A stretch of 64,000 bases of DNA, from contig NZ_JACHGE010000003.1 of NCBI RefSeq assembly GCF_014202225.1, positions 62,001 through 126,000 of the forward strand, in the 5' to 3' direction. The translations under genes and the position numbers were made by a program. The notes beneath the pieces were generated by a model. That model was not told the DNA's origin, searched no databases, and saw only the letters and a program-made list of their open reading frames with translations. This DNA is from Algibacter amylolyticus (GTDB lineage Bacteria; Bacteroidota; Bacteroidia; Flavobacteriales; Flavobacteriaceae). Positions 3,969 through 63,808 of the stretch are shown piece by piece; positions within the stretch are counted from its first letter, which is position 1; every line of letters starts with the position of its first letter.

Positions 3969-4063
3969 GGGCGTTACCCATAAAGGGTCGCGCTTTCCGC
4001 TACAAGTCCTCGCACTTCCTATCGTCAGGCTGTGGGCTTTCCACTTCAATCCCTAACGCGGGT
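3969..4063 (+). repeat. dispersed ~90-bp repeat, copy A
   Basis: The element starts with GGGCGTTACCC 20 bases after the ABC-F stop codon and ends with CAATCCCTAACGCGG. The inner words TACAAGTCCTCGCAC and CTGTGGGCTTTCCACTTC are shared with copies B, C and D. The outer arms GCGTTA and TAACGC are inverted. It occupies the gap between the convergent ABC-F and DUF2007 genes. Further on, CATAAATCTT and AAGATTTATG (about 4165-4195) form an AT-rich hairpin. Confidence 0.75.
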
Positions 4064-4238
4064 TAATCTGCGTACTGGTTTTTAAATGGCGGGCAATGGG
4101 TCTGTTTGTATAAGGGTTTTGCTGTAAAAAAAAGTACAAATAATCAATTATAGAAGAAGCTGAAGGCATAAATCTTAATTTAAAGATTTATGTCTATGCA
4201 TTTTAATTGTTGCAAAAATTTAAACGGATTAGCTTTAA

Positions 4239-4475
4239 TTAGTACTCCAACTCTAATTCCAATAAGAAGTTTTCAAAAACAGGTTTTGCCCTTTCAAGTT
4301 CATCCTCATGCACATGAATATGCAATATGCCATGAAAAGGAGAGCCTAAACCACCCAATCTAGCGTATTCAGATTCATCTTTAACTATAGCCGAAATATT
4401 TAAGTTTTGTAGTTCTTTAAAAATACGTTGAATATCAATAAAATAGCCTGAAAATACTTTAATGTAGTTTAACAT
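4239..4475 (-). CDS. DUF2007-type putative signal-transducing protein, paralogue 1
   Basis: A 78-residue protein with the DUF2007 pattern: an N-terminal strand (YIKVFSGYFIDIQRI), a helix, then ISAIVKDES, a short Gly-rich loop (LGGLGSP), and the terminal HVHEDELERAKPVF helix. The fold resembles the small ferredoxin-like sensor domains called putative signal transducing proteins; no ligand is established. It has no membrane segment. Two more copies lie directly upstream on the same strand. It is more like paralogue 3 than paralogue 2, sharing KDESE and ELERAKP. The gap to paralogue 2 is 142 bases, so all three may be one transcript. Confidence 0.8.
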   Translation of the reverse strand: MLNYIKVFSGYFIDIQRIFKELQNLNISAIVKDESEYARLGGLGSPFHGILHIHVHEDELERAKPVFENFLLELELEY

Positions 4476-4617
4476 GGTATAATCTGTAAGAGGGTTTTTT
4501 ACATGTACGTAATATTAGTATGGTTTAGATGTTCTAAACCCAAAAGATTACAAATACAAAATAAGTCCTTCCTTCGCCGTATCCAATAATTAAAAAGTTT
4601 GTGCTTAGCTGTTTATA

Positions 4618-4851
4618 TTATGGTAATTCTAAATTCAAATTTTTAAGAATAAGCGTAGCTTTTTCATGTTCATCTTTATGCACATAAATTTGCTTTAGTA
4701 AACTATTGGACATTCCAAAAATAGGTAACAAGCCAGAATCGGTTTGTTCCTTAACCACAGGGATTATATCCTGTTTTTCCAGTTCCAGAATAATTTTTTG
4801 AACCTCCATTAATTCACCGGTAAAAATCTTAATATAATTTGAATCTGTCAT
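4618..4851 (-). CDS. DUF2007-type putative signal-transducing protein, paralogue 2
   Basis: A 77-residue member of the DUF2007 family and the most diverged of the three tandem copies. It keeps YIKIFTGELMEVQKI at the N-terminus and IYVHKDEHEKATLIL at the C-terminus. The central loop differs (KEQTDSGLLPIFGMSN in place of KDESE-GGLGS), so its binding surface may differ. It is cytoplasmic by composition. The spacing of 126-142 bases on either side and the same orientation suggest local duplication followed by divergence. Confidence 0.78.
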   Translation of the reverse strand: MTDSNYIKIFTGELMEVQKIILELEKQDIIPVVKEQTDSGLLPIFGMSNSLLKQIYVHKDEHEKATLILKNLNLELP

Positions 4852-4977
4852 AGCTTATGGTGTTTCAAAGTGTTTAAATTTTTGGGTATAACAATACATC
4901 ATTGCGCATAGTCAACGTTAAAAATATAGCCAATAGATTATGGCTTTGTACTGTAGTTTAAAAATGTAATGAAATGA

Positions 4978-5217
4978 CTAATCTAGCTCTAATTCCGAAA
5001 TTGAATTTGAACTTTCAATAATAGGTTTTGCTCTTTCAAGTTCGTCTTTATGCACGTGGATTTCTTGCAAACCTTGAATGGACGATCCAAAACCTGCTAA
5101 TCTTCCAGATTCAGATTCATCTTTAATAATGGCGCAAATATTTACTTCTTCAAGTAATTTAAACATGCGTTGTACTTCAATAAAATTCCCAGAAAATACT
5201 TTTATGTAGTTCGACAT
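4978..5217 (-). CDS. DUF2007-type putative signal-transducing protein, paralogue 3
   Basis: A 79-residue DUF2007 protein and first of the triplet in transcription order. It has YIKVFSGNFIEVQRM at the N-terminus, ICAIIKDESESGRLAGFGSS in the middle and IHVHKDELERAKPII near the end. It is close to paralogue 1. The pheT terminator separates it from pheT upstream, so the triplet is probably transcribed on its own. No function is proved for the family. Confidence 0.8.
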   Translation of the reverse strand: MSNYIKVFSGNFIEVQRMFKLLEEVNICAIIKDESESGRLAGFGSSIQGLQEIHVHKDELERAKPIIESSNSISELELD

Positions 5218-5266
5218 ATCTTAAAGGTTAAAAGGTTACCTCTTAAAGATACAATATTTTTAACGC

Positions 5267-5305
5267 AAAAACCTGTTAATTAAATAATAATTAACAGGTT
5301 TTTTT
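5267..5305 (-). terminator. pheT transcription terminator
   Basis: AAAAACCTGTTAATTA at 5267-5282 and TAATTAACAGGTTTTTTT at 5288-5305 form a long hairpin with T-runs on both strands. It lies about 50 bases after the pheT stop codon and before the DUF2007 genes. Confidence 0.85.
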
Positions 5306-5357
5306 AATAATAATTAGTTGTTATATTTAGTTATGTAGCCACAAACAAGCGGCTAAA

Positions 5358-7784
5358 TTATCTTAATTCTGCACCTAACTGATTTTCAAAATTACTTTGT
5401 AATTTTTTCATAATCTTATCAATTTGCTTGTCGTTAAGCGTTTTGTTTTCATCTTGTAGCGTGAAACTAACGGCGTAACTCTTTTTGCCTTTAGGTAAGT
5501 TTTTACCTTGGTAAACATCAAATAAGTTAACAGCTGTAAGCAATTGCTTTTCGGTTTGCTTAGCTATTTTATAAATAGACTCAAAAGTAACACTGTCGTC
5601 TAGCAGTAATGCGAAATCACGACGTACTCCAGGATATTTAGAAATGGCCTTAAACTTAATCTTGTTATGCTTAACTAAATCTAAAATGCTATCCCATTTA
5701 AAATCGGCATAAATAACTTCTTGCCCTATATCAAAATGCTTTAAAATAGGTTTTTTAATTAAACCAAATTCTACCAATACATTTTTACCAAGACCAAACG
5801 TTAAACCTTCGGTAAATAAATCACTTTTAATAGGCGATTCGTTAAACCTAGAAATGCCTAAACGTTCTAAAATAGCAATTATATAACCTTTCATTAAAAA
5901 GAAATCGCTCTTTTTACTTGTATCTGTCCAGTTTTCTGAGTTTTTATCTCCTGTTATAAAGGCTGATAAATGTTTGTATTCCTCACGCTTATCATTATAA
6001 CCATGGTAGGTTTTCCCGAATTCGAACAATTTTAAATCGCCACGTCTTCTATTAATGTTAAACGAAACCGCTTCCAACCCAGAAAACAATAAAGATTGTC
6101 TCATTACAGACAAGTCGTTACTTAAAGGATTTAGTATGGTAATATTGTGTTCTTCCTTTAATTGCTCGCTTAAAGCCGCGTAATTTGGTGTGGTAAGCGA
6201 GTTGGAAAGAATTTCAAAAAAGCCTTGCGATGCTAATTGGTTTCCAACAATATTCTGAATTTTATAATCTTCAAAACGCGACGTTGTAGAAATAGAGGCG
6301 TTAAGTTTTTCGGTAGTTTTAATATTATTATACCCGTAAACTCTTAAAATTTCTTCAATAACATCGGCTTCTCTTTCAACATCGTTTCTATACGCCGGAA
6401 CCGTTAATCCTAAACCAGCTTCGGTAACATTATTTACCTTAATGTCTAACGAGCTTAATATTTGTTTTATGGTTTCTTTTGGTATTTCTTCTCCAATTAA
6501 TTTTTCGGTATTTTCAAAGCTTAAACGCACTTCAAAATCCTTAATTTTTTTAGGGTAGAAATCTAAAATATCGCTAGTAATTTCACCTCCAGCTATTTCT
6601 TGAATAAGTAATGCGGCACGTTTTAAAGCGTATTCGCACGTATTTGGGTCTATACCACGCTCAAATCTAAAAGAAGCATCGGTATTTAAGCCATGACGTT
6701 TAGCAGATTTTCTAATACTTACAGGATTAAAATAAGCACTTTCTAAGAAAATATTTGTGGTATGCTCGGTAACTCCAGAATCTAAACCTCCAAAAACACC
6801 AGCAATACACATAGGTTTATCGCCATTACAGATCATTAAATCATCTTCGTGTAATTCGCGTTCAACACCATCTAAAGTCACAAATTTAGTGCCTGCAGGC
6901 AAGGTTTTAACCTCTATTTTGTTTCCAGAAATTTTTGCAGCATCAAAAGCATGTAACGGTTGCCCTAAATCATGTAACACATAATTAGTAGCATCTACAA
7001 TATTATTTAAAGGTGTTAAACCAATAGCTTTTAAGCGGTGTTGTAACCAAGCAGGAGATTCGGCTACTTTAATGCCAGAAATAGAAACCCCACAATAACG
7101 TGGTGCTAATTCTTTATCCACCACTTCGATATCCATTTTTAGGGTGCGGTTCTCTACATGAAACGCACTAATGGAAGGTGTAATTAATTCTAGGTTAATA
7201 TCTTTTTGCACCAATCCCGCTTTTAAATCGCGAGCCGTTCCTAAATGGCTCATGGCATCGGCGCGGTTAGGCGTTAATCCAATTTCGAAAACTTGGTCGT
7301 TTTCAATATCAAAAAGATCGGCAACTAAGGTTCCCACTTTAATATCGTTATCTAAAACTAGAATACCGTCATGCGATTTTCCTAGGCCTAATTCATCTTC
7401 AGCGCAAATCATACCGTGGCTTTCTTCGCCACGAATTTTACCTTTTTTAATGGTCCACGATTCGCCTTCTTCGGTATATAAAACCGTACCTATTGTAGCA
7501 ACAGGTACTTTTTGTCCTGCATCTACATTAGGTGCACCACATACAATTTGTAAAGGCGCATCTGCACCAACATCAACTGTGGTAATTTTTAGTTTGTCGG
7601 CATTTGGGTGTTTTACACAAGTTAAAACCTCGCCAACAACAACACCTTCTAATCCTCCTTTTACGGATTGATAGGTTTCAATACCTTCAACTTCAAGTCC
7701 TAAATCTGTAAGTAGTTCGCTAGTTTGTTCTGGTGTCCAATCTGTTTTTAAAAATTGTTTTAACCAGTTGTATGAAATCTTCAT
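5358..7784 (-). CDS. pheT: phenylalanine--tRNA ligase beta subunit
   Basis: An 808-residue protein of full bacterial PheT length. With PheS it charges tRNA-Phe in the cytoplasm. It opens with MKISYNWLKQFL, then an EMAP/tRNA-binding OB domain (about 42-150, with KHPNADKLKI), the B3/B4 editing domain (about 210-385, with LDGVERELHEDDLMI and AGVFGG), a B5 domain (about 405-475), the catalytic-like core, and the C-terminal anticodon-binding FDX-ACB domain (about 715-808, starting YPGVRRDFALLLD). pheS is not adjacent, which is common in this phylum. A strong promoter lies upstream and a hairpin terminator downstream. Confidence 0.97.
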   Translation of the reverse strand: MKISYNWLKQFLKTDWTPEQTSELLTDLGLEVEGIETYQSVKGGLEGVVVGEVLTCVKHPNADKLKITTVDVGADAPLQIVCGAPNVDAGQKVPVATIGTVLYTEEGESWTIKKGKIRGEESHGMICAEDELGLGKSHDGILVLDNDIKVGTLVADLFDIENDQVFEIGLTPNRADAMSHLGTARDLKAGLVQKDINLELITPSISAFHVENRTLKMDIEVVDKELAPRYCGVSISGIKVAESPAWLQHRLKAIGLTPLNNIVDATNYVLHDLGQPLHAFDAAKISGNKIEVKTLPAGTKFVTLDGVERELHEDDLMICNGDKPMCIAGVFGGLDSGVTEHTTNIFLESAYFNPVSIRKSAKRHGLNTDASFRFERGIDPNTCEYALKRAALLIQEIAGGEITSDILDFYPKKIKDFEVRLSFENTEKLIGEEIPKETIKQILSSLDIKVNNVTEAGLGLTVPAYRNDVEREADVIEEILRVYGYNNIKTTEKLNASISTTSRFEDYKIQNIVGNQLASQGFFEILSNSLTTPNYAALSEQLKEEHNITILNPLSNDLSVMRQSLLFSGLEAVSFNINRRRGDLKLFEFGKTYHGYNDKREEYKHLSAFITGDKNSENWTDTSKKSDFFLMKGYIIAILERLGISRFNESPIKSDLFTEGLTFGLGKNVLVEFGLIKKPILKHFDIGQEVIYADFKWDSILDLVKHNKIKFKAISKYPGVRRDFALLLDDSVTFESIYKIAKQTEKQLLTAVNLFDVYQGKNLPKGKKSYAVSFTLQDENKTLNDKQIDKIMKKLQSNFENQLGAELR

Positions 7785-7808
7785 AAATCAATGTCCTATT
7801 TAAGCGTG

Positions 7809-7839
7809 CAAAGATAAAATATTGAAGTCAGCATTCAAA
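7809..7839 (-). promoter_or_regulatory. Bacteroidota promoter for pheT
   Basis: On the minus strand TATCTTTG (7809-7816) is a full TAnnTTTG box, and TTTG (7836-7839) lies exactly 19 bases upstream. The box ends 24 bases before the ATG. This is the cleanest promoter of the window. Confidence 0.75.
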
Positions 7840-8125
7840 CAAAGGATGGCATTTTGTTAATATGTTAATTTGGGGTTGGTTTTGTTGCGGTTTGGGGATG
7901 GTAAACAACTGAAATTGTTCCATTAAGAATGATAACCAATAGATGCAAGTGGATAAAGTTGTAATTGATTGTTTATTGATTTTTTTAGGTGCTATTTGGA
8001 GTGTTGAAATAGAGAAGTTTTGATTATAGTTGTTTTGTGAGGAAAATTTGAAGCTAGCAAATAAATTAACTCACATTGGTTAAGCACGAAATAGTAATTT
8101 TTTATATACGGTGTCGTATGTCGTT
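7840..8125. other. non-coding gap between pheT promoter and trypsin-like gene
   Basis: About 285 bases of AT-rich sequence with no frame that I can support, no strong hairpin and no member of the dispersed repeats. It is the 3' region of the trypsin-like gene. Confidence 0.5.
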
Positions 8126-8899
8126 TTATTTTAAAATATCAAATAGGTAATATGAAGGTGTTATTGCTGCTAATTTGCCGCCTGTGTTATCGCTATATGT
8201 TCCGTGCATTACTCCAAGAAAGATTGTTTTTTTTCCTCCATGAAACATGCTTCTTTTAACAGAGTAGTAAACTCCAGAACCACTACAGCCTTGTATACTA
8301 GGAATGTTTAAATAAAAAAAAGTCGATTTTTTTTTATTATCACCTCTACGTTGAGTCAATAAACCACTACAGATTTTTGAGTTAAAAGAAAGTGAGGAAA
8401 AATGAGTTAAATCTAAATCTATCACGGGGTAACCGAAAAATGTAATGTCAGAATCTCTTGAAGGTAAGTTTTTGCCATTATTAATTTGACTAGAAGGGAA
8501 GGAATTGTTTTCAATTCTATTTTTTAAGAACTTTTCATTTGGTATTTTTAATTCAAGTATTGCCATATCTGCTTCTTTATGAAAGACCCAATTTATACCT
8601 GAAGTTGCTGATATTCTTTTTAAATCAACTTTATAAGGTTTGTCATTTTCAATTCTAAAAATAATTTGACTTAAAGAGTCCATAGGTTTCGCAACGTGAG
8701 CTGCTGTTACTAAATAGAATTTAGCATTATGTTCAATAATTGAACAAGTTCCTGTGCTTGCAGTTGAAGCCGTTTTTTGTTTATAAAGCAAAGCACTCAT
8801 ATCAGATATTTCTATCTCATCCCATTGAGTCTTTTTTTCTTGTCCTTCAATAATATTTATTTGGAAAATTAGAATAATTAAAATAATATTTTTTTTCAT
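8126..8899 (-). CDS. secreted trypsin-like serine protease
   Basis: A 257-residue protein with a hydrophobic signal peptide (about 1-19, ending IIEGQ). The chymotrypsin-like triad can be placed: TAAHV with His68, ADMAIL with Asp111, and GCSGSG with Ser206 as nucleophile. These spacings fit trypsin-like peptidase domains of about 200 residues. It has no PDZ domain, so it is not a DegP/HtrA protease. Location is probably periplasmic or secreted. It is a single gene with low-complexity flanks. Context gives no substrate, and activity is inferred only from the triad. Confidence 0.72.
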   Translation of the reverse strand: MKKNIILIILIFQINIIEGQEKKTQWDEIEISDMSALLYKQKTASTASTGTCSIIEHNAKFYLVTAAHVAKPMDSLSQIIFRIENDKPYKVDLKRISATSGINWVFHKEADMAILELKIPNEKFLKNRIENNSFPSSQINNGKNLPSRDSDITFFGYPVIDLDLTHFSSLSFNSKICSGLLTQRRGDNKKKSTFFYLNIPSIQGCSGSGVYYSVKRSMFHGGKKTIFLGVMHGTYSDNTGGKLAAITPSYYLFDILK

Positions 8900-9110
8900 G
8901 GTTATTTATTCTGACTAATGACAATTTTTAAATCCTCTAAAATTTAAGTTTATTTAGTGTCTTGATTAAATATTATGAGGGAATGACACATAATATTTTT
9001 ACGGATATCAAACCGTTTTTATATTTTCCATTCAACAATAAACAAATTTAGTTGAAAATGATTATAAGCTAGAGATTTTTATTATATGTTTTGAAAGACT
9101 TTTCAACAAT

Positions 9111-9581
9111 CTATAACTCCTCCAACATCAGGTTAAAATCGTACTGTAAATCTTCGTGTAGTTTAGCTATACTTTTTTTAGCTAGAAGTATTTGGCGGTT
9201 GTACATGTTTTGTAGTTGTGTGCTTCGTTTTATGCTGGGTTTAAAGTCTTTAAGTTTTTGGCAGAAATAGAGTAGGAGTTCTACTTCGGTTTCCTTTTTT
9301 TGGGAGTAGCGAATAAACTTTTTAACGTTACGGAGTATTTTACGAGCACTTTTTCTAATATAGAAATAGCTGTTGGTATTAATAAGGTCGAATTCCTCGT
9401 CTATATAGTCTTTAACGGTTTGTATGTAGCCACTTTCGTTGTGCGACTCGAAGAGTAAATAGGTAAGGAGCTCTTTGTTTTCTTTTTTAAATCGGGCTAA
9501 ACGCAAGCATAGTTCTTGGGTTTCTTTGTGTGAAAGTGTATTGAGTTCTTTCTTTATTTCTGGTAATGGTACAGCTTTCAT
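9111..9581 (-). CDS. conserved hypothetical helical protein
   Basis: A 156-residue, strongly charged, all-helical protein (for example LSHKETQELCLRLARFKKENKELLTYLLFES and ARKILRNVKKFIRYSQKKETEVELLLYF). It has no signal peptide, no membrane segment and no motif that I can tie to a known family. It looks cytoplasmic, and the two halves could form a helical bundle. It starts at the ATG at 9579-9581. Codon use and AT content look like its neighbours, so I take it as real. I do not recognise a function. Confidence 0.65.
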   Translation of the reverse strand: MKAVPLPEIKKELNTLSHKETQELCLRLARFKKENKELLTYLLFESHNESGYIQTVKDYIDEEFDLINTNSYFYIRKSARKILRNVKKFIRYSQKKETEVELLLYFCQKLKDFKPSIKRSTQLQNMYNRQILLAKKSIAKLHEDLQYDFNLMLEEL

Positions 9582-9650
9582 TTATAAAAGTCGATTTATT
9601 ATGGCTTAAGTGGTTTGTATGTTAAATACCAATAATGTGATATGTTTAAG

Positions 9651-9688
9651 AGACCTACGAGGTTTTTAAAACCTTGTAGGTCTTTTTC
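9651..9688. repeat. palindromic hairpin element
   Basis: AGACCTACGAGGTTTT and AAAACCTTGTAGGTCT form a near-perfect 16-bp stem followed by TTTTT. No plus-strand gene ends here, so it is a terminator-shaped palindrome in the 308-base gap between the 9111 gene and the E1 gene. It may be a mobile palindromic repeat. Confidence 0.6.
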
Positions 9689-9781
9689 CCTGATGTTATA
9701 AATATAAAAAAAGGATTGTAAGTACAATGGTTTGCGGGTGTTAAATAAATAATTGTTGTGTACTTAAGTTAGCGGATAACT

Positions 9782-9870
9782 GCGCTAGGGATAGCATTGG
9801 AAAGCCCACAGCCCGACGTAGGAGGTGCGAGGACTTGTAAAGTATAGCCCGACCCCTGTGGTAGCGCCCC
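9782..9870 (-). repeat. dispersed ~90-bp repeat, copy B
   Basis: On the plus strand it begins GCGCTAGGGATAG and ends GTGGTAGCGCCCC. The inner words AGCCCACAGCCCGACG and AGGAGGTGCGAGGACTTGTA are shared with copies C and D. In the direction of the E1 gene it starts with GGGGCGCTACC 20 bases after the stop codon. The arms GCGCTA/TAGCGC and CCACA/TGTGG are inverted. Confidence 0.85.
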
Positions 9871-9889
9871 AATTATTTTTAATAACGTG

Positions 9890-12301: not shown

Positions 12302-12420
12302 AGGTTCATGCTTTTTAGTTTTGCGAAAGTAGTCAAAATAGACCTTTTTTGCAATTAATTGCCTTGTTAAAATAATGATAAATTTTTAAAGATGTAATGC
12401 TTAATTACTTTTGTATTGCT

Positions 12421-12462: not shown

Positions 12463-12471
12463 TAAAACGAT

Positions 12472-16133: not shown

Positions 16134-16146
16134 AGTATGTTTTTTA

Positions 16147-30309: not shown

Positions 30310-30312
30310 ATT

Positions 30313-40738: not shown

Positions 40739-40901
40739 GGGCATTCCCTAAAGGTCGGGCTTTCCACTATATCTTTTTAAAGGGTTATTGCAATAAAACG
40801 AGGTTTGTGGTAATTTATTAAAATCTAGAAATTACTAAGTCCATTGCTTTAAAACTTTAAAAAGGATGCCGTTGCAATCCCTAATGCGAGTTACGTAATG
40901 T
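40739..40901 (+). repeat. dispersed repeat, copy E (expanded variant)
   Basis: GGGCATTCCCTAAAGGTCGGGCTTTCCACTAT lies at one end and GGATGCCGTTGCAATCCCTAATGCGAG at the other, with unrelated AT-rich sequence between them. The outer ends resemble those of copies G and H, but an insertion of about 75 bases has parted them. It occupies most of the 281-base gap between miaE and recG, oriented opposite to the other copies relative to the gene whose 3' end it follows (recG). Confidence 0.55.
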
Positions 40902-48587: not shown

Positions 48588-48676
48588 GCGCAAGGGATAG
48601 TAGCGGATAGCCCACAGCCCGACGCAGGAGGTGCGAGGACTTGTAGCGTATAGCCCGACCACTTGTGGTTGCGCCC
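48588..48676 (-). repeat. dispersed ~90-bp repeat, copy C
   Basis: Plus strand begins GCGCAAGGGATAGTAGCGGA and ends CTTGTGGTTGCGCCC. It shares AGCCCACAGCCCGACGCAGG and AGGTGCGAGGACTTGTAGCG with B and D. On the minus strand it starts GGGCGCAACC 77 bases after the stop codon of the glutamate-synthase-like gene. The arm pair GCGCAA / TTGCGC has changed in both halves at the same position (against GCGCTA / TAGCGC in B and D), a compensatory change that supports a real paired stem. Confidence 0.85.
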
Positions 48677-54415: not shown

Positions 54416-54490
54416 GGTTTAGTTTTCAGTATACAGTTTTCAGTCTTTAGTTTGTAGTTGGCAGTTTTAAGTGTGCAGTTTACAGTCAGA
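54416..54490. repeat. degenerate CAGT-word repeats after uvrD
   Basis: A run of short words TTCAGT, ACAGT, TTTAGT, GCAGT repeats about every 7-10 bases directly after the uvrD stop codon and leads into the 14-bp array. I find no gene here. Confidence 0.6.
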
Positions 54491-54500
54491 AATTTTAGAT

Positions 54501-54570
54501 CTTCGGTCAACCGTCTTCGGTCAACCGTCTTCGGTCAACGGTCTTCGGTCAACCGTCTTCGGTCAACGGT
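54501..54570. repeat. tandem 14-bp repeat, five units
   Basis: Units CTTCGGTCAACCGT at 54501, 54515 and 54543, and CTTCGGTCAACGGT at 54529 and 54557, are five head-to-tail 14-base copies that differ only at one position (C/G). Decayed copies (CTTCGGTCTTCCG, CTTCGGTCAATCAA) continue to about 54660. GGTCAACCG is partly palindromic. Translating this run gives only low-complexity peptides. Confidence 0.9.
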
Positions 54571-54742
54571 CTTCGGTCTTCCGTTTTCTGACTTCGGTCT
54601 TCCGGCTTCGGTCAATCAACTTTTGTCAATCAACTTCTTTCTTCCGACTTCTAACTTCCTTACATTTTCAAAAAAAAAAAACAGCGCAAGTTTATTTTAA
54701 ATAAAGCATCTAAAACCTAATAAACAAATAATAAATACCTGT

Positions 54743-55423: not shown

Positions 55424-55436
55424 ACCTAATTATAAA

Positions 55437-55469: not shown

Positions 55470-55564
55470 ATATGTCTTATCTTTAGGGTTTAAATTATTT
55501 AAGGAATCACTTTAGCATACCAAAATAATATTTAAATTGTATACGTAAATTCACGAGATAAAAA

Positions 55565-56185: not shown

Positions 56186-56200
56186 ATCACCATATCAAAC

Positions 56201-56293
56201 TAAATGTCAGTTCGAGTGATCTTGAATTTTTTCGAGATTGTATCGAGAACCGCTTTAAAACTAGTATTTCAATTCAAAATAAAACGCCATCTA
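56201..56293 (+). repeat. 93-bp direct repeat, unit 1
   Basis: TAAATGTCAGTTCGAGTGAT is followed by a CGAATTTTTTCGAG-type hairpin core, TGTATCGAGAACC and AATTCAAAATAAAACGCCAT. It recurs at 56341 with only a few changed bases. It starts 15 bases after the Sua5-type gene. Inside, a short palindrome gives a hairpin. Confidence 0.9.
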
Positions 56294-56340
56294 GTTTTAA
56301 AAGATAGCTCACAAATTATCATAAATCAATTTATAAAGAC

Positions 56341-56433
56341 TAAATGTCAGTTCGAGTGATCTCGAATTTTTTCGAGATTGTATCGAGAACCACTTTAAAA
56401 TCAGTATTTCAATTCAAAATAAAACGCCATCTA
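56341..56433 (+). repeat. 93-bp direct repeat, unit 2
   Basis: The second unit starts exactly 140 bases after the first. CTCGAATTTTTTCGAG is a 16-base palindrome here; in unit 1 it is CTTGAATTTTTTCGAG. The rest of the 56186-56498 gap is AT-rich with no gene that I can support. Confidence 0.9.
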
Positions 56434-56498
56434 TTTCTTTAAAACTAGCATAACAAATTAATTTAAATTTCCAAACCGCAAAAATCAGAAATTAGCCC

Positions 56499-57893: not shown

Positions 57894-57910
57894 TTTTTTG
57901 AGTGCTATTT

Positions 57911-58040
57911 GGGCGCCTGTCTTAAGAGTAGTCGAAAGGTTACCACACCCTTCGTCTGCGCTCAGGGAAGGCGGTCAGGCTTTCACTACTCAATCCCTCC
58001 TATGTCGGGGATTTCAAACATGCCGTTCAATCCCTAACGC
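57911..58040 (+). repeat. dispersed repeat, copy G (long variant)
   Basis: It begins GGGCGCCTGTCTTAAGAGTA and ends CGTTCAATCCCTAACGC. It contains GTCGAAAGG, GGCGGTCAGGCTTTCACTA and CTCCTATGTCGGGG. Opening and closing arms match copies A and H. It lies 18 bases after the DUF819 stop, in the gap to the convergent small-protein gene. Confidence 0.75.
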
Positions 58041-58121
58041 GGACTTTGTTAATAAGCACAGACCTTTCAGTTTAGCACGAACGCCCTATGTTTTTTATAC
58101 ATTGTTACCTACTGCCTTTTT

Positions 58122-58334
58122 CTATTCGGGTAACTCTTCACATTTAATGCCATTGTCGTTTAAAATTTCAATGGTCTTTTTTACAATATTAACTTGGCTA
58201 TCAATCCGTAAAATATTGTCACAATCTTCAAGGTCAAAGTTCCAATTGGAATCTGCTAATAATTTGTTTAAATGTGGTGTTAGTAGTTTGATTGTTTTTT
58301 TAGAACTTATTGATGTTTTAAATACAAATACCAT
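58122..58334 (-). CDS. small conserved protein of the TetR-controlled operon
   Basis: A 70-residue protein: MVFVFKTSISSKKTIKLLTP, NKLLADSNWNFDLEDCDNIL, RIDSQVNIVKKTIEILNDNG, IKCEELPE. The beta-alpha-beta pattern with two Cys (DLEDCDNI and IKCEEL) is like a ferredoxin-like or HMA-type fold, but it has no CxxC. I take it as a real gene because it lies in one run with three genes on the same strand, 12 bases after DUF3817. A plus-strand frame over the same region crosses a repeat and is rejected. Confidence 0.72.
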   Translation of the reverse strand: MVFVFKTSISSKKTIKLLTPHLNKLLADSNWNFDLEDCDNILRIDSQVNIVKKTIEILNDNGIKCEELPE

Positions 58335-58346
58335 TATTATCTTTTT

Positions 58347-58655
58347 TTATCTGTTTATGTTGCGAAGGATTTTATAATCAATGTAGAAAGTGCCAAATGG
58401 AATAAAACAAGCGATAAGGATTTTCCAAGTTGTTTCTTTGAATTTCCACTGTTGTTCGATACTTACTTTTAAAGCATTTATTAAAAACAGTAAAAATAAT
58501 GCACCGTGAATAGGCCCAAGAGATTTTGAAAGTGAAGAATTGTCATAATAATATTTTATTGGAACAGCTACAAAAACCAAAACAAGTAATGAAAATCCTT
58601 CTAAGAAAGCAAGAAGTCGTAAACGTCCGATTGTTGTTGTAAAATACTTTTTCAT
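58347..58655 (-). CDS. DUF3817 family membrane protein
   Basis: A 102-residue protein with three membrane helices (about 12-33, 45-64, 75-95). LRLLAFLEGFSLLVLVFVAVPIKYY and LGPIHGALFLLFLINAL fit the DUF3817 family (His within the GPIHGxLF motif). Function unknown. It begins 2 bases after the stop of the four-helix protein gene, so the operon is tight. It lies in the inner membrane. Confidence 0.85.
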   Translation of the reverse strand: MKKYFTTTIGRLRLLAFLEGFSLLVLVFVAVPIKYYYDNSSLSKSLGPIHGALFLLFLINALKVSIEQQWKFKETTWKILIACFIPFGTFYIDYKILRNINR

Positions 58656-58657
58656 AA

Positions 58658-59122
58658 TTAAAATTGTCTAAAATTAGGTCTACTTGATAGTGGTGAAAAT
58701 GTCCAAGGAATTACAATAAAAATGATTAATAAAGCAATGGAATACCAAAGAAGCATTGTTTTAAATTTTTCTTTATCTGTTGGTTTTCTTTTTGCTTTTG
58801 CAGAACCAATTGTCAATACAACAATAGAAGTCAACATTAGAAAAATGTGTATTAAACCATAGAATGTCAAGTCCAAATTTTGTAAACCTATTTTGGTTTC
58901 TTTCCAAAAGTATTTTATTATCGGACTTTGTGTATAAAGTAATATACCAACCATTAACTGAATGTGTGCCATGGTTGCTGTCCAATGTCGAAAAGCATTA
59001 TCTACTTTTGAAAATGATTTGTTTTTTGAGTATCCAATAAATGCTCTATAAATGGAATAAACCAAAAAAGCTAGAACAAACCAACGGATTAATGAGTGAA
59101 TAGATAATAATGTTAAATACAT
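58658..59122 (-). CDS. four-helix membrane protein with conserved histidines
   Basis: A 154-residue protein with about four membrane helices: SIHSLIRWFVLAFLVYSIY, ATMAHIQLMVGILLY, DLTFYGLIHIFLMLTSIVVLTIG, and LWYSIALLIIFIVIPW. Each of the first three has a His inside or at the edge of the helix (SIHSL, MAHIQL, LIHIFL), a pattern that suits b-type heme. I cannot name the family with certainty. It is the first gene of the TetR-linked operon; a palindromic operator precedes it by 40 bases. Confidence 0.7.
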   Translation of the reverse strand: MYLTLLSIHSLIRWFVLAFLVYSIYRAFIGYSKNKSFSKVDNAFRHWTATMAHIQLMVGILLYTQSPIIKYFWKETKIGLQNLDLTFYGLIHIFLMLTSIVVLTIGSAKAKRKPTDKEKFKTMLLWYSIALLIIFIVIPWTFSPLSSRPNFRQF

Positions 59123-59161
59123 TTTACATTGTGGTTTTTTAATTTTAATGTAAAAGTAAAT

Positions 59162-59187
59162 AAAAACATACTAATTAGTATGTTTTT
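59162..59187. promoter_or_regulatory. TetR operator candidate 1 (26-bp palindrome)
   Basis: A perfect 26-bp palindrome with core ATACTAATTAGTAT (59168-59181), flanked by AAAAAC and GTTTTT. It lies in the 75-base gap between the tetR stop codon and the first membrane gene, 40 bases from that gene's ATG. The same core frame ATACTnnnnAGTAT occurs before the tetR start. Confidence 0.8.
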
Positions 59188-59197
59188 AAATAAAAAA

Positions 59198-59788
59198 TTA
59201 TTTTAAGCTATTGAGGTAATTTTTAAGTTGCTTTAAATAAGATAGATATGGTTTTTTACTGTTTTCTAATTTCCCAAAATTTCGTATACCCCAATAACCT
59301 GACATAATAAACATTGTTACCTGTTTTGCATTAACATTATTACGTACAAATTTGTTTTCCTTTCCTTTTTCAATGATAGCTGTCATTACTTTTATCCATT
59401 CTTGTGTTAGCTCGTTTAAAGCAATATTAAAGTCAGTATTCCAAGGAGTCATCTCTTGTGTAAAGTTTGATGCTGGACAACCATACTCAACTTTTAAAAA
59501 CTCATTTTTCATTAAAAGGTTATCCATTAGATAATAAATAGCCTCCAATGGGTTTTCTTCTTTTTGTAGCGGTTGAATAAAATTGTTTGTAAATCTTGGT
59601 TTCAGAATTTCATTGATAATGGCAACTCCCATCTTGTCTTTGGTTTTAAAATGGTAATAAAAAGCTCCTTTTGTTACTTGTGTTGTAGCAATAATGTCAT
59701 CAATACTTGTTGTTTGATAACTCTTAGTATAAATCAGTTCAAATGCTTTTTGTAGTATTGTCAGTCGTGTTGATTCTGCCTTTTTCAT
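59198..59788 (-). CDS. TetR/AcrR family transcription regulator
   Basis: A 196-residue regulator. The N-terminal DNA-binding part has ESTRLTILQKAFELIYTKSY, then TSIDDIIATTQVTKGAFYYHFKTKDKMGVAII, the TetR helix-turn-helix with its typical GAFYYHF. The rest is the helical ligand-binding domain (about 55-196). It lies upstream of the three small membrane/soluble genes. Matching palindromes before its own start and before the operon suggest it represses both. The ligand is not known. Confidence 0.92.
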   Translation of the reverse strand: MKKAESTRLTILQKAFELIYTKSYQTTSIDDIIATTQVTKGAFYYHFKTKDKMGVAIINEILKPRFTNNFIQPLQKEENPLEAIYYLMDNLLMKNEFLKVEYGCPASNFTQEMTPWNTDFNIALNELTQEWIKVMTAIIEKGKENKFVRNNVNAKQVTMFIMSGYWGIRNFGKLENSKKPYLSYLKQLKNYLNSLK

Positions 59789-59793
59789 ATAAG

Positions 59794-59807
59794 ATACTAT
59801 TCAGTAT
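59794..59807. promoter_or_regulatory. TetR operator candidate 2 (autoregulation)
   Basis: ATACTATTCAGTAT shares ATACT and AGTAT with operator 1, with the same four-base spacing. It lies 6-19 bases upstream of the tetR ATG at 59786-59788, overlapping where transcription should begin. Confidence 0.7.
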
Positions 59808-60008
59808 TTTTTATACAAAGAAACAATAAAATAGTTTTTGTTCAAAATTTCAATCTATTCGGCTATTTTCAGGTTGTAGGTAATGCAAAGATAAGTTTCC
59901 GTTTCAATGAAATTTATCGATTGTTAAACGAATTTAGGTGATTTTTCTGACAAATTCAAGTAGTATGCTAAAGCGATTATATAAATTTGATATTGAGTTT
60001 ATAAGTTG

Positions 60009-60113
60009 CGTTAAGGATTGAACGGCATGTTTGAGCTCGCCGACATAGGAGGAAGCGAGTAGTGAAAGCCTGACCCTTTAGGGTGCGCCTTTCGACTTCG
60101 CTCAAGACAGGCT
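60009..60113 (-). repeat. dispersed repeat, copy H (long variant)
   Basis: Plus strand begins GCGTTAAGGATTGAACGGCA and ends with CAAGACAGGCT. It contains CCGACATAGGAGGAAGCG, GCCTGACCC and GTGCGCCTTTCGACTTCG. It is a reverse-oriented relative of copy G. Read on the minus strand, it follows ompA and its terminator by 48 bases. The rest of the 59808-60211 gap holds no gene that I can support. Confidence 0.75.
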
Positions 60114-60160
60114 CCAAAAAAAATCTAAACAGTGGTGAGATTCACGTTTTCCCGGCCATA

Positions 60161-60190
60161 AAAAAAGCCCAATCTTTCGATTGAGCTTTT
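60161..60190 (-). terminator. ompA-like gene terminator
   Basis: Minus strand: GCTCAATC and GATTGGGC pair around GAAA, followed by TTTTTTT, starting about 25 bases after the stop codon of the OmpA lipoprotein gene. Confidence 0.85.
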
Positions 60191-60211
60191 GGTATATATT
60201 TGTGAGCGGTA

Positions 60212-61072
60212 TTAGTTGTTACCTGCTTCTAGGTTTTTCATTTCCTTTTCAATCATGTCGTAAAACTGATCGATTTTTGGAAGTATAACAACACGTGTAC
60301 GTCTGTTTTTTGCTCTGTTTGCAGCAGTATCGTTATCGGCTAATGGCACGTAAGAACTACGACCTGCAGCGATTAACTGTCCTGGGTTAACATCTAACTC
60401 TTGTAATACTCTAATGATAGAAGTAGAACGTTTTACACTTAAATCCCAGTTATCTACTAACACACCTTTACTGTATGATTGGCTGTCTGTATGACCTTCG
60501 ATCATAGCTTCGAAATCTGGTTTGCTGTTAATTACCTTAGCTACTTTTGCTAACACACCTTTTGCTTGAGAGGTTACATTGTAGCTTCCTGATTGGAATA
60601 ATAATTTATCGGCGATAGAGATAAATACCACACCTTTTTCAACATTTACTTCAATATCTGGATCGTTAATTCCAACTTCACGCTTTAAGCTAGTTACTAA
60701 AGCTAATGTTACACTGTCTTTTCTAGAGATAGCGTCTTGTAAACGTGTAATTTTTAAATCTCTTTCTTGTAAAGACTCTAAAGATTTTTCAAGGTTTGTT
60801 GCGCCTTTAGATGTTAATTCTGTTAAATCTTGAGAACTTTTAATTAAAGCTGTATTGTTCTTTTTTAAATCGTCAAGCTGATCTTTCATAGCCTCTACAC
60901 GTGCTGTAGCTGATGCTCTGTCCTCTAAACAAGAGTTAAGTTTTACAGTTGCTGAGTTAAGTAAGTCTTGAGTTTCTTTTTGTTTTGCTTCAAGGTCTGT
61001 GAACAATTTTTTTGATACACATGAACTTAATAAAAGCATTGCAGATGCACTTAGTAATAAAATTTTTCTCAT
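60212..61072 (-). CDS. OmpA family lipoprotein
   Basis: A 286-residue lipoprotein with lipobox LSSC (Cys18). After a coiled-coil stretch (about 25-125, with SATVKLNSCLEDRASATARVEAMKDQLDDLKK), the OmpA-like peptidoglycan-binding domain (about 145-280) is complete: FQSGSYNVTSQAKGVLAKVA, IEGHTDSQ, DNWDLSVKRSTSIIRVL and AAGRSSYVPLADN followed by NRAKNRRTRVVI, with the Asp and Arg that hold diaminopimelate. It links the envelope to peptidoglycan. TATTTTTG at 61107-61114 on the minus strand fits its -7 box. Confidence 0.92.
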   Translation of the reverse strand: MRKILLLSASAMLLLSSCVSKKLFTDLEAKQKETQDLLNSATVKLNSCLEDRASATARVEAMKDQLDDLKKNNTALIKSSQDLTELTSKGATNLEKSLESLQERDLKITRLQDAISRKDSVTLALVTSLKREVGINDPDIEVNVEKGVVFISIADKLLFQSGSYNVTSQAKGVLAKVAKVINSKPDFEAMIEGHTDSQSYSKGVLVDNWDLSVKRSTSIIRVLQELDVNPGQLIAAGRSSYVPLADNDTAANRAKNRRTRVVILPKIDQFYDMIEKEMKNLEAGNN

Positions 61073-61106
61073 GATTATTTTAAGGATTAATTTCTATAAT
61101 TAACTA

Positions 61107-61114
61107 CAAAAATA
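61107..61114 (-). promoter_or_regulatory. -7 box for the OmpA lipoprotein gene
   Basis: Minus strand TATTTTTG matches TAnnTTTG, 34 bases before the ATG. No clear TTTG box at the usual distance. Confidence 0.4.
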
Positions 61115-61164
61115 TACAAAATTCGGTGGTTTTTAACATTTTAACAAAACTTTTGCTAATAGTC

Positions 61165-62154
61165 TTATAAACTGCGGTATTCTGTTTTTTTACATACGAA
61201 GTAATCGTACACAATAGATGTTGTAGAATAGTACTTTGTTTTGGTTTTTATGGCTTTTCGTTGCTTTAGTACTCGTGGTAATTGCTTGTAATAACTAAAG
61301 TGTGCTTTTAATATGGCTAGCATGTGTAACGGTTTTAATTGCAATAAAAACTTAATGGCTGCTGCACCATCTAATATAAGACGCACAAATATTTTACCAA
61401 ATACAAAGCCATTGGCATTTTTGGTTAAGGTAATTAAGCTATTCCGGAAGTTTAAAAAGGTTTTCCTGGGGTTTGTACTTTTAAGCGTTGCTCCGCCTAC
61501 ATGATATATTGTAGATTGCCCAACATATTTTATGGTATGACCTAGGTTTTTTGCGCGCCAGCATAAATCGATTTCTTCCATGTGAGCGAAAAAATACTCA
61601 TCAAGTCCATTTAATTGTTGGTAAACGTTGCTTCTTATAAATAAACAGGCGCCTGTTGCCCAAAATATTTCGGTAGTATCGTTATACTGTCCATGGTCTT
61701 TTTCGATGGTATCAAAAATACGACCTCTACAATACGGATAGCCATATTTATCTATAAAGCCTCCTGCAGCACCAGCATATTCAAAATACGCCTTGTTATT
61801 AAAATCTAATATTTTTGGCTGAATTATACTTGTATTAGCCTCGGTTTTAAAGGTGTTTATAATAGGTGTAAGCCAATTTGGAGTAACCTCGATATCGCTG
61901 TTTAGTAAGCAATAAACATCTGCCTTTACATGTTTTAATGCGTCGTTGTAGCCTTTGGCATATCCGCCATTGGTTTGGTTTTGTATTAGTGCTATATTGG
62001 GGTAATTGGTTTTTACAAAGGCAATGGAATTGTCGGTCGAGGCATTGTCTGCTACATAAATATCGGCACCTTGACTATGCTGTATTACCGATGGTAAAAA
62101 CTGTTGTAATAGTTTTTGTCCGTTCCAGTTTAGTATAACGATTGCAATTTTCAT
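61165..62154 (-). CDS. glycosyltransferase family 2
   Basis: A 329-residue GT-A glycosyltransferase. It has IAIVILNWNGQKLLQQFLPSV (N-terminal strand and UDP site), YVADNASTDNS, then LLNSDIEVTPNW for the DxD-like metal site (NSD), and EIDLCWRAKNLGHTIKYV for the acceptor region. This fits rhamnosyl- or related sugar transferases of GT2 (WbbL-like). The end is rich in aromatic and basic residues and probably contacts the membrane. It overlaps the nuclease-like gene by 4 bases (ATGA), so the two are translationally coupled. Confidence 0.9.
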   Translation of the reverse strand: MKIAIVILNWNGQKLLQQFLPSVIQHSQGADIYVADNASTDNSIAFVKTNYPNIALIQNQTNGGYAKGYNDALKHVKADVYCLLNSDIEVTPNWLTPIINTFKTEANTSIIQPKILDFNNKAYFEYAGAAGGFIDKYGYPYCRGRIFDTIEKDHGQYNDTTEIFWATGACLFIRSNVYQQLNGLDEYFFAHMEEIDLCWRAKNLGHTIKYVGQSTIYHVGGATLKSTNPRKTFLNFRNSLITLTKNANGFVFGKIFVRLILDGAAAIKFLLQLKPLHMLAILKAHFSYYKQLPRVLKQRKAIKTKTKYYSTTSIVYDYFVCKKTEYRSL

Positions 62155-62597
62155 GATTGGTATTCTGGAATATCTTTTAAAAATTGATAGCGTTCATTTT
62201 CAAAATCCATTTGGCAATAATAATGATTTAATCCGTTTGTTACCATTAAAAACGTGGCATTTAACTCTAGGTTATAACGTGCAATTTGATCGAAAGTAGA
62301 TTGATTGATGCTTATTTTAGGGGCTTTACATTCTACAATTAAATGAATGCTGCCATTGGGATTATAAACCACAATATCGTAACGTTTTTTTAAATCGTTA
62401 ATGATTATTTCTTTCTCAACATTTATTAGCGATAGCGGGTAGCCTTTTTCTTGTACTAAAAACTGAATGCAATGTTGGCGCACCCATTCTTCGGGCTGTA
62501 AAACGATAAATTTTTTGCGTATAGGATCGAAAATAGAAACTTTATTTTCGCTATTTTTGAAACGGAATTGATATGTAGGGAAATTTAAATTTTGCAC
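62151..62597 (-). CDS. HsdR N-terminal-like PD-(D/E)xK nuclease domain protein
   Basis: A 148-residue protein that resembles the type I restriction enzyme R N-terminal domain on its own. It has RKFIVLQPEEWVRQHCIQFL, then KKRYDIVVYNPNGSIHLIVECKAP, with the Asp and Glu-x-Lys of the PD-(D/E)xK nuclease fold, and KISINQSTFDQIARYN. No helicase, specificity or methylase gene is near. Small HsdR_N proteins of this kind are common and their role is not settled. It is coupled by a 4-base overlap to the glycosyltransferase downstream. Confidence 0.85.
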   Translation of the reverse strand: MQNLNFPTYQFRFKNSENKVSIFDPIRKKFIVLQPEEWVRQHCIQFLVQEKGYPLSLINVEKEIIINDLKKRYDIVVYNPNGSIHLIVECKAPKISINQSTFDQIARYNLELNATFLMVTNGLNHYYCQMDFENERYQFLKDIPEYQS

Positions 62598-62629
62598 CTC
62601 ACAAATTTATCATTATTAAGTCACTTGTA

Positions 62630-63664
62630 GTGATTTTAATAAAAAATTTTAAAGACACTTTGGACGAAGTAAAACAGCTAGTTACCGATATTAAAAACAA
62701 AAACCTTAAGCCCATTTATTTTTTAATGGGTGAAGAGGCTTATTATATTGATAAAATTTCCGATTTTATTGAAAGCTCTGTACTAAGTGAAGAGGAGCGT
62801 GGTTTTAACCAAATGGTATTATATGGTAGAGATGTTACCATAGATGATATTGTTGGGCAAGCTAAACGTTTTCCTATGATGGCAGAGTACCAAGTGGTTA
62901 TTGTTAAGGAAGCTCAAGATTTATCGCGCCATATTGAAAAACTAGCAGCCTATGCTAAAAATCCGCAACCCTCTACAGTACTTGTAATTAATTACAAATA
63001 CAAAAAGATTGATAAGCGTAAAGGGTTATATAAAGCACTTAAACCGGATTGTGTGGTTTATGAAAGTAAAAAGCTTTATGACAACCAGGTACCCGATTGG
63101 ATTAGGCGTGTATTATCGCCAAAAAACTATACCATTTCACCTAAAGCGGCGCATATGCTTGTTGAGTTTTTAGGGACCGATTTAAGTAAAATTAATAACG
63201 AGCTAGAAAAGCTTCAAATTATTTTAGCCGAAGGCACCCAAATTTCGCCAGATCATATTGAAGAAAATATAGGGATTAGTAAAGACTATAATAATTTTGA
63301 ATTACGAAAGGCTATTGGCGAACGTAATGTGCTTAAAGCGCACAAAATAGTTAATTATTTTGGTGAAAACCCAAAGGATAACCCCATGGTGGTAACGGTT
63401 TCGTTATTGTTTAGTTATTTTTCGCAACTGCTTCATTTTCATGGGTTGAAAGATAAGTCGCCTAGAAGTGTGGCTTCTGCATTAAAGGTGAATCCTTATT
63501 TTGTAAACGATTATATTACTGCTGCTAGAAATTTTCCGATGCGAAAAGTTAGTGCCGTAGTATCGACGTTACGAGAGTTTGATGTAAAGGGTAAAGGTGT
63601 AGGATCTAACGCTGTGCCACAAGGCGATTTGCTTAAAGAGCTTTTGGTTAGAATACTTTCTTAA
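62630..63664 (+). CDS. holA: DNA polymerase III subunit delta
   Basis: A 344-residue clamp-loader subunit. It has KPIYFLMGEEAYYIDKISDFIE (the N-terminal AAA-like strand without a Walker A, as usual for delta), KRFPMMAEYQVVIVKEAQDLS, STVLVINYKYKKIDKRKGLYKAL, and VEFLGTDLSKINNELEKLQIIL. It opens the beta sliding clamp. The start is uncertain: GTG at 62630, or TTG at 62660, which would give the MDEVKQLVTDIK form that I recall for related proteins. It has no close neighbour on its strand; a dispersed repeat follows. Confidence 0.9.
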   Translation: MILIKNFKDTLDEVKQLVTDIKNKNLKPIYFLMGEEAYYIDKISDFIESSVLSEEERGFNQMVLYGRDVTIDDIVGQAKRFPMMAEYQVVIVKEAQDLSRHIEKLAAYAKNPQPSTVLVINYKYKKIDKRKGLYKALKPDCVVYESKKLYDNQVPDWIRRVLSPKNYTISPKAAHMLVEFLGTDLSKINNELEKLQIILAEGTQISPDHIEENIGISKDYNNFELRKAIGERNVLKAHKIVNYFGENPKDNPMVVTVSLLFSYFSQLLHFHGLKDKSPRSVASALKVNPYFVNDYITAARNFPMRKVSAVVSTLREFDVKGKGVGSNAVPQGDLLKELLVRILS

Positions 63665-63720
63665 AAGGGTTTTGGAATTTTTTAAATTGAGTTACTAAAA
63701 TTTTAATGGTACTAGAATGT

Positions 63721-63808
63721 GCGCTAGGGATAGTAGTGGATAGCCCACAGCCCGACGTAGGAGGTGCGAGGACTTGTAACGAATAGCCCGACCCTTGTGG
63801 TAGCGCCC
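63721..63808 (-). repeat. dispersed ~90-bp repeat, copy D
   Basis: Plus strand begins GCGCTAGGGATAGTAGTGGA and ends CTTGTGGTAGCGCCC. It is nearly the same as B in AGCCCACAGCCCGACGTAGG and AGGTGCGAGGACTTGTAACG. On the minus strand it starts GGGCGCTACC 16 bases after the stop of the YfcC-like gene. It lies between the convergent holA and YfcC-like genes. Confidence 0.85.

What the first reader, a model, noticed from the sequence alone, without database searches (positions are those of the whole stretch)
3969..63808. A dispersed, oriented ~90-bp repeat sits directly after the 3' ends of unrelated genes
Seven copies occur: A 3969-4063, B 9782-9870, C 48588-48676, D 63721-63808, and longer or broken relatives E 40739-40901, G 57911-58040, H 60009-60113. 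Read from the upstream gene's stop codon, six of seven begin with GGGCGC or GGGCGT (GGAGCC-type in H) and end with CCCTAACGC or CCCTAGCGC, so they share one orientation relative to transcription; A, B, D and G start only 16-20 bases after the stop. A, B and D are entered by ATAATT before the GGG. The outer arms GCGCTA/TAGCGC are changed together in copy C (GCGCAA/TTGCGC), and CCACA/TGTGG pair inside, so a paired RNA or DNA structure seems kept. Flavobacterial genomes carry similar sequences, but I know of no assigned role. Either a REP/MITE-like element targets 3' ends, or it acts as a 3'-end processing or termination unit.
Basis: partly seen in the sequence, partly recalled or inferred. Interest (0 to 1): 0.72.

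Follow-up and report, generated by a model that had tools for sequence, protein, structure and literature searches.

The report
Mosaic Flavo-1 repeats of flavobacteria
The repeats are a branch, amplified in the genus Algibacter, of a known but unexplained flavobacterial RNA motif (Flavo-1); the whole family looks like a mix-and-match set of folded elements, and its classical form sits at fixed places between the genes of conserved operons.

Summary
The ~90-bp repeats are real: 76 places in this Algibacter genome, 0 for the reversed control pattern. They still lie close to stops and avoid starts. No terminator T-run follows either end, and no RAYT link was found. Copies persist in place: 43 of 53 A. 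pectinivorans copies read are orthologous; elements are 96% identical against 86% for flanks. New here: the family is a mosaic of two outer frames and at least three cores. Its classical form faces a stop codon in 29 of 30 loci read (of 41 places, 20 genomes), in conserved operon gaps such as sufD-sufS. There the core is swapped inside one frame, even between two Algibacter species. Best reading: a REP/BIME-like mosaic family. Function is inferred.

The parts
541..681 (+).
   Evidence: Rfam RF01705 50.3 bits, cut-off 42; kept at the same site in A. pectinivorans
3969..4059 (-).
   Evidence: R1 96.1 bits; Rfam 30.6 bits; orthologue in A. pectinivorans
9782..9869 (+). Copy B, P1 frame + core D
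   Evidence: R1 111.7 bits; Rfam 29.5 bits; copies at the same site in A. pectinivorans and in L172, the latter with its P4 hairpin replaced
40739..40892 (-). Copy E, P1 frame + core II with long loop; oriented opposite to A-D relative to the upstream gene
   Evidence: Rfam 47.7 bits; R2 66.5 bits; R1 38.0 bits
48588..48676 (+). Copy C, P1 frame + core D
   Evidence: R1 103.8 bits; Rfam 31.5 bits; orthologue
57911..58040 (-). Copy G, broken relative
   Evidence: no R1 match at E<=1 in the window; match at about the corresponding place in A. pectinivorans 24.1 bits, E 0.18
60008..60113 (+). Copy H, altered relative; A. pectinivorans has a canonical copy near the corresponding place (orthology not shown, flanks align poorly)
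   Evidence: R1 35.3 bits against 102.9 for the A. pectinivorans copy; alignment
63721..63808 (+). Copy D, P1 frame + core D
   Evidence: R1 111.7 bits; Rfam 26.3 bits; orthologue
63721..63726 (+). Copy D: 5' arm of outer stem P1 (GCGCTA)
   Evidence: columns 1-6 of A1; columns 4-92 and 5-90 covary
63801..63806 (+). Copy D: 3' arm of outer stem P1 (TAGCGC)
   Evidence: columns 89-95 of A1
63727..63745 (+). Copy D: left arm of the long internal helix with two GNA half-loops
   Evidence: columns 7-25; columns 12-67, 16-63, 17-62 covary
63770..63789 (+). Copy D: right arm of the long internal helix
   Evidence: columns 53-72
63750..63767 (+). Copy D: hairpin P4, loop replaced in other copies
   Evidence: columns 30-50; columns 33-46 covary

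Best explanation
The repeat is the Algibacter branch of the Flavo-1 family, which is a mosaic family of folded intergenic elements that works like the REP/BIME elements of enterobacteria. SHOWN: one conserved single-strand fold (outer stem, a long helix interrupted by paired GNA-type loops around a 2-bp pair, swappable hairpins). SHOWN: two outer frames (classical TTTAGCCC...GGGAAATAGCTTC, and P1 GCGYNAGGG...CCCGACC-hairpin-GGTNRCGCCC) combined with at least three cores (D, II, III). SHOWN: dispersed D-type copies of random orientation in this genus, and classical copies facing stop codons at conserved places in operons of many genera. SHOWN: slower change than the flanks. INFERRED: the P1 branch was amplified as a non-autonomous mobile element whose folded Rfam strand is the recognised substrate, by a machinery not identified here. 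INFERRED: classical copies in operon gaps are kept because the folded intercistronic segment sets an mRNA decay or processing boundary behind the upstream gene, as the malE-malF structure does. Dispersed copies are tolerated behind stop codons and largely excluded from the neighbourhood of start codons.
For: 76 places, control 0. The top six background-corrected mutual-information column pairs are exactly nested base pairs; 80 double changes against 24+-4 shuffled, at most 7 in slid controls; 57 against 14.6+-2.6 on 42 matches from two other species (alignment fitted to the model); 21 against 7.7+-2.0 on 20 classical elements. G-U 16 against A-C 1 on the Rfam strand, 15 against 5 in the other species. 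A model of 26 core-II elements finds A, B, C, D at E<=2e-5. Frame and core combinations: P1+II, P1+III in L320 and L348, classical+III. At sufD-sufS 17 of 26 gaps hold the classical frame in one orientation: 6 core II, 8 core III, 3 decayed by my reading; G044 (core II) and G000 (core III) are one genus. 29 of 30 classical loci face a stop codon. Pfam on one member per cluster: SufD/SufS, HgmA/HPPD-like, ZnuA/ABC ATPase. Orthologous copies 95.9% identical against 85.8% and 86.7% in 60-nt flanks, gaps ignored. 43 of 53 copies read in A. pectinivorans match a copy here by their flanks, against 7 of 40 by both flanks in two more distant species.
Against: No clean empty site, target duplication or mobilising enzyme was found, so mobility is inferred from copy number and lineage-specific variants. 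In orthologous pairs 15 pair changes keep pairing and 30 involve a non-standard state in one species (some come from poor end alignment), so pairing is not strictly held in each copy. On the 20 classical elements the number of pair types (5 against 5.5) and of pairs with double changes (3 against 2.4) does not exceed shuffles. Single D-type sequences fold no better than shuffles (z 0.67 and 0.13); the elements have z -1.0 to -2.1. The wobble bias favours the strand antisense to the operon genes, which does not fit an mRNA-level role of the gene strand.
Confidence: 0.55

Rival explanations
1. Classical Flavo-1 is a bona fide regulatory RNA (antisense, or a cis-element of operon gaps) conserved for its own function; the P1/D copies are mobile derivatives without function.
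For: 29 of 30 classical loci in one orientation toward a stop; 11 of 12 when each gene family is counted once; same gene pairs in several genera: sufD-sufS, hmgA-HPPD-like, ZnuA-ABC; near strict Watson-Crick covariation; in the 6 sufD-sufS loci 11-12 nt from the TAGCCC box to the next start codon.
Against: D copies are also conserved in place and so do not look functionless. 9 of 26 sufD-sufS gaps lack it. The core is not kept: core II and core III replace each other. RNA-seq in F. psychrophilum found hits in sense or antisense of transcribed regions and many outside them (PMC9723704, passage).
Confidence: 0.3
2. REP elements moved by a RAYT/TnpA-REP transposase.
For: Dispersed, structured, strand-biased fold, intergenic; positive association with strong Y1_Tnp over 120 genomes; a Bacteroidetes TnpA subclass is reported with atypical flanking structures (PMC6006769, passage).
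Against: 0 of 29 fetched Y1_Tnp loci have a Flavo-1 match at E<=1. This genome has only a Y1-like domain inside a methylase-like protein. A. marinivivus has no Y1_Tnp match at E<=0.001, yet a variant of its own in 21 of 45 places.
Confidence: 0.07
3. A 3'-end processing or termination unit for the gene upstream.
For: 27 ends within 30 nt of a stop against 4 within 30 nt of a start; convergent gaps mildly enriched (15 of 72 against 11.4%, p=0.02); orientation bias in above-cut-off members (38 of 52).
Against: Random orientation of D copies (37 of 75), 17 copies between two start codons, no T-run after either end.
Confidence: 0.12
4. Neutral MITE remnants; conservation comes from gene conversion between copies.
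For: High copy number, sharp ends, lineage-specific loop variants.
Against: Orthologues are 95.9% identical while even the 39 best full or partial paralogues scored match copy D at 85-95%, so copies are not homogenised; the element changes about a third as fast as its flanks.
Confidence: 0.15

Closest known systems
Flavo-1 RNA motif (Rfam RF01705; Weinberg et al. 2010, PMC2864571)
   Same: Same conserved helix with GNA half-loops; 2 window members over the cut-off, A-D under it
   Different: A-D have an extra outer stem, hairpins P4 and P5 and another core; the mosaic structure and operon positions are not in the passages seen
REP/BIME elements of enterobacteria
   Same: Intergenic, palindromic, close behind stops, mosaic, many copies; an ABC substrate-binding gene followed by the element, as for malE (PMC5927463 passages on malE decay; that the malE-malF structure is a REP and that BIMEs are mosaic is recalled)
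   Different: No RAYT; longer and multi-helix; shared sites between species; REP sequence tags (GTAG, CGTC) not tested
MITEs such as RUP and ERIC (recalled)
   Same: Short, non-autonomous, dispersed, structured
   Different: No terminal inverted repeats matching a resident IS shown, no target duplication seen, conserved in place

Membership tests
Flavo-1 (RF01705) | Score at or above the Rfam cut-off (42 bits) | tested here: not met
   A-D 26.3-31.5 bits; 541-681 and E do meet it. So A-D are relatives by homology, not members by Rfam's threshold
Flavo-1 (RF01705) | Conserved helix: outer GC pairs, U-A plus W-W pair, GNA/GNA loops around a 2-bp pair | tested here: met
   full-length model matches (1-76) for A-D; same covarying positions in both sets; core-II model hits A-D
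REP/RAYT system | RAYT (TnpA-REP) gene in the genome, or flanked by the element | tested here: not met
REP/BIME (works like) | Many intergenic structured copies close behind stop codons, mosaic composition | tested here: met
   orientation bias only in classical and other above-cut-off copies
REP/BIME (works like) | Effect on mRNA decay | not testable with these tools
   needs RNA half-lives
MITE | Terminal inverted repeats and target duplication, empty sites in relatives | tested here: inconclusive
   P1 arms are 6-bp inverted repeats; no clean empty site in the stretches compared
Intrinsic terminator | Hairpin followed by a T-run | tested here: not met

The most novel reading that the evidence does not exclude
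Rfam's Flavo-1 is one combination of a modular system (at least two frames and three interchangeable cores). Its classical frame is an old, orientation-fixed element of operon gaps behind Fe-S, Fe-dioxygenase and metal-uptake genes, where the core can be exchanged in place while the frame stays. It would act as an intercistronic decay or antisense control element from which a dispersed repeat family was spun off.
Probability: 0.35. Interest if true: 0.75.

Novelty: new variant of a known kind. Interest (0 to 1): 0.55.

Why it matters
Flavo-1 is named in a review section on the most abundant sRNA families (PMC9029176, passage) and has no role in the passages seen. Fixed positions at sufD-sufS, hmgA-HPPD and a metal ABC transporter give concrete loci at which deletion or core swaps can be tested. 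The mosaic structure suggests why one covariance model sees only part of the family.

Tried and rejected
Terminator reading: rejected on end composition. RAYT partner: rejected. Replication polarity: no strand clustering in this genome (31 of 65 neighbours alike, p=0.65). In other sets p was 0.11 (own above-cut-off matches), 0.03 (G071), 0.22, 0.66 and 0.93; not pursued. Promoter at the GGG end: TAnnTTTG in 2 of 67. Empty sites: no clean one against A. pectinivorans or two other species. Integron attC and riboswitch readings were considered from recall only and not pursued. Literature: no paper holds the phrase 'Flavo-1 RNA'; three hold 'Flavo-1' and 'Weinberg' (passages of all three seen); RF01705 is in 4 papers (passages of PMC2864571 and PMC9029176 seen, the other two only as a listing); the core sequence appears in 4 unrelated papers (listing); the listings showed no title or abstract on the repeat.
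Full report
WHAT IS THERE. Repeat search recovers B, C and D as one direct family and A, G and H through inverted matches. Rfam reports two members of RF01705 Flavo-1 above its cut-off, 541-681 (+) and 40892-40749 (-). With a relaxed threshold A, B, C and D match the same model over its full length at 26.3-31.5 bits (cut-off 42). In the genome (4.35 Mb, 25 contigs) a core pattern of the D type has 76 places (up to 2 mismatches), 39 forward and 37 reverse, and none for the reversed control pattern. With up to 1 mismatch in 149 genomes it is nearly confined to the genus: 9 of 10 genus genomes (0 to 73 places), and 6 of 139 others, one with 7 places and five with 1; the control pattern has 3 places in all. 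The nearest named relative is Algibacter pectinivorans (98% identity of one window protein). In 80 loci of up to 22 kb from related species the D model has 6 matches at E<=1 (two in L169, two in L181, one each in L172 and L216); the core-II model has 6 at E<=0.05.

THE FOLD. 48 of the 76 copies (both ends recognised and 86-93 nt long; 28 left out) were aligned on the Rfam strand. The six highest background-corrected mutual-information pairs of all column pairs are 12-67, 33-46, 16-63, 4-92, 17-62 and 5-90, all nested. On my 24-pair structure 97.1% of cells pair; 80 cells are double changes against 24.0 (sd 4.0) in shuffles and at most 7 in slid controls. In 42 matches on 40 loci of two further species (alignment fitted to the model, so leaning towards it) the numbers are 96.0% and 57 against 14.6. 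Non-Watson-Crick cells on the Rfam strand are 16 G-U against 1 A-C, with 32 other mismatches, and 15 against 5, with 35 others, in the second set. The conserved G..A positions on both sides of the 2-bp pair look like sheared G-A loops; that motif is recalled, not tested. Minimum-energy folding of two D-type sequences is no better than shuffles.

ORIENTATION AND POSITION. Genes were called with a codon-usage script of mine, not taken from an annotation. Forty copies from A. marinivivus and an uncultured Algibacter give 20 of 40. Length-weighted intergenic expectation on one 446-kb contig is 64% co-directional, 24% divergent and 11% convergent; observed 40, 17 and 15 of 72. What is strong is the difference between gene ends: 27 element ends lie within 30 nt of a stop and 4 within 30 nt of a start. 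The GGGCG end is the nearer one (21 of 37 against 6 of 35; 9 of 35, p=0.009, if 14 nt are allowed for a weak extension at the other end). That end is preceded by TTT in most copies; the CGC end is followed by a weak GGGTTAG-type extension; neither has a T-run behind it.

PERSISTENCE. A, B and 541-681 are all at the same sites in A. pectinivorans; B is also in L172 with its P4 hairpin replaced, L171 shows what looks like a remnant, and L174, L177, L183 and L188 show none. Not all A. pectinivorans loci were fetched. Of 53 copies found (E<=1e-6) in the stretches that were, 43 match a copy of this genome by their flanks, all in the same orientation (40 by both flanks, 3 by one); the other 10 were not resolved. 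Elements are 95.9% identical, their 60-nt flanks 85.8% and 86.7%, gap columns ignored (40 pairs). Of 37 pairs that could be placed on the model (6 skipped), pair changes were 4 double and 11 single that keep pairing, and 29 single and 1 double in which one state is non-standard. Against two more distant species 7 of 40 copies match by both flanks and 5 by one. In A. marinivivus 21 of 45 places have a core ending TCTC (my count). The ten loci I picked from that variant group (nine ending TCTC, one TCTA) all carry a palindromic insert of the type TCCCGATAGCTATCGGGA in P4, altered in L340, L342 and L348. In orthologous pairs C6:63381/L306 and C1:812697/L297 one species has a CCTTTCGACT-type hairpin in place of the right half-loop. 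So most copies shared with the nearest species are old; turnover shows at greater distance; the element is constrained and exchanges hairpins.

MOSAIC. The matches above the Rfam cut-off in this genome are mostly a second form: the P1 frame of A-D around the Flavo-1 core. A model of 26 above-cut-off elements, most of this form and two of them classical, finds A, B, C and D at E<=2e-5. A third core (GAGGCATTTGTTG...GCGACTGCCGA) occurs in the P1 frame in L320 and L348 and in the classical frame in six sufS loci and one further locus of this genome (fetched loci only). I have not seen core D in the classical frame.

CLASSICAL MEMBERS. A pattern for the classical frame with core II has 41 places in 20 of 100 family genomes, control 0; 30 loci from all 20 genomes were fetched. 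In 29 of 30 the gene facing the Rfam-strand 3' end is on the other strand with its stop toward the element (distance up to 34 nt in 27, 95 and 158 nt in two); in 24 both neighbours are on that strand. The upstream genes fall into five similarity groups and seven single loci, of which one has no upstream stop called. One member per group by Pfam: SufD, followed by a class-V aminotransferase I take for SufS, in 6 genomes; homogentisate dioxygenase in 6, followed in 5 by an HPPD-like glyoxalase protein (HPPD N-terminal model 26.4 bits, cut-off 27); ZnuA-type binding protein followed by an ABC ATPase in 5; chorismate synthase in 3; PhoH in 3. Counting each group or single locus once, 11 of 12 have this orientation (p=0.006). 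In L396, L401, L407 and L442 the stop codon is the TAG of the element edge. Above-cut-off members, classical and P1 together, give 29 of 41 in G000 (40 of the 41, one not fetched, plus E) and 9 of 11 of those fetched from G044 (of 34 matches), together 38 of 52, p=0.001. In 31 distinct classical elements (3 more had no recognisable right arm) four pair positions show 122 Watson-Crick cells, 1 U-G and 1 A-A.

SUFD-SUFS. Of 119 genomes with a SufS match, the 30 loci closest to the query were fetched; 26 have SufD directly upstream. Six hold core II (by pattern), eight core III (six by pattern, L431 and L434 by eye), three look decayed by eye (L437, L439, L443), nine have no element. G044 (core II) and this genome (core III) are one genus and share GAAGCTAATCCCGCT and ATCGGGGCTAAAC around different cores. 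In L431 the inner GGCA/TGCC pairs are GGTA/TACC. For the core-II element both strands fold into the frame helix; for the core-III element the minimum-energy folds differ; z is -1.0 to -2.1.

HOW IT PROBABLY WORKS. In E. coli malEFG the upstream substrate-binding gene is stabilised against decay, and protective RNA 3' structures are the model given (PMC5927463, passages). A ZnuA-type binding gene followed by the element fits that pattern, and tolerance of core exchange fits a role for any stable fold. The wobble bias for the antisense strand speaks against a pure mRNA role and for an antisense RNA or a single-stranded DNA substrate. I therefore commit to a REP/BIME-like mosaic family with inferred mobility and an inferred decay-boundary role of classical copies, at 0.55.

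KNOWN WORK. Flavo-1 is listed as a candidate RNA, not cis-regulatory, in Weinberg et al. 2010 (PMC2864571, table passage). A Flavobacterium psychrophilum transcriptome found hits in sense and antisense of transcribed regions without clues to function (PMC9723704, passage); that agrees with the random orientation of dispersed copies. I found no description of the mosaic or of the operon positions in the searches and the passages seen; most subscription papers and all supplements are outside that library.

Noticed in passing
L001 (own genome C2:316070-316282, -): A Y1_Tnp/HUH-like domain (DHIHLLL) lies inside a type IIG/Eco57I-like methylase (motifs named from recall), between its DPACGSGAFL and NPPY motifs; matches in frames over 1000 aa also in G120, G121, G122 and G123, not looked at further.
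   Followed up: partly
window 56199-56436: Tandem pair of 98 nt, 95% identical.
   Followed up: no
window 54472-54660: Array of a 14-nt unit TCTTCGGTCAACCG.
   Followed up: no
window 4239-5217: Similar stretches repeated two to three times, with two called genes of about 80 aa.
   Followed up: no
own-genome D copies, loops: Other short hairpin repeats (CCTTTCGACT..CAAGACAGG, CCTGCCTGCCGGCAGGCAGG, ACCTACAAGG..CCTTGCAGG) recur at the same loop positions of the element.
   Followed up: partly
L396, L401, L407, L442: The upstream gene ends on the TAG of the element edge, so the element supplies the stop codon.
   Followed up: no
G071 contig C1: Flavo-1 strands along the chromosome are mildly clustered (29 of 45 neighbours alike, p=0.03).
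   Followed up: partly
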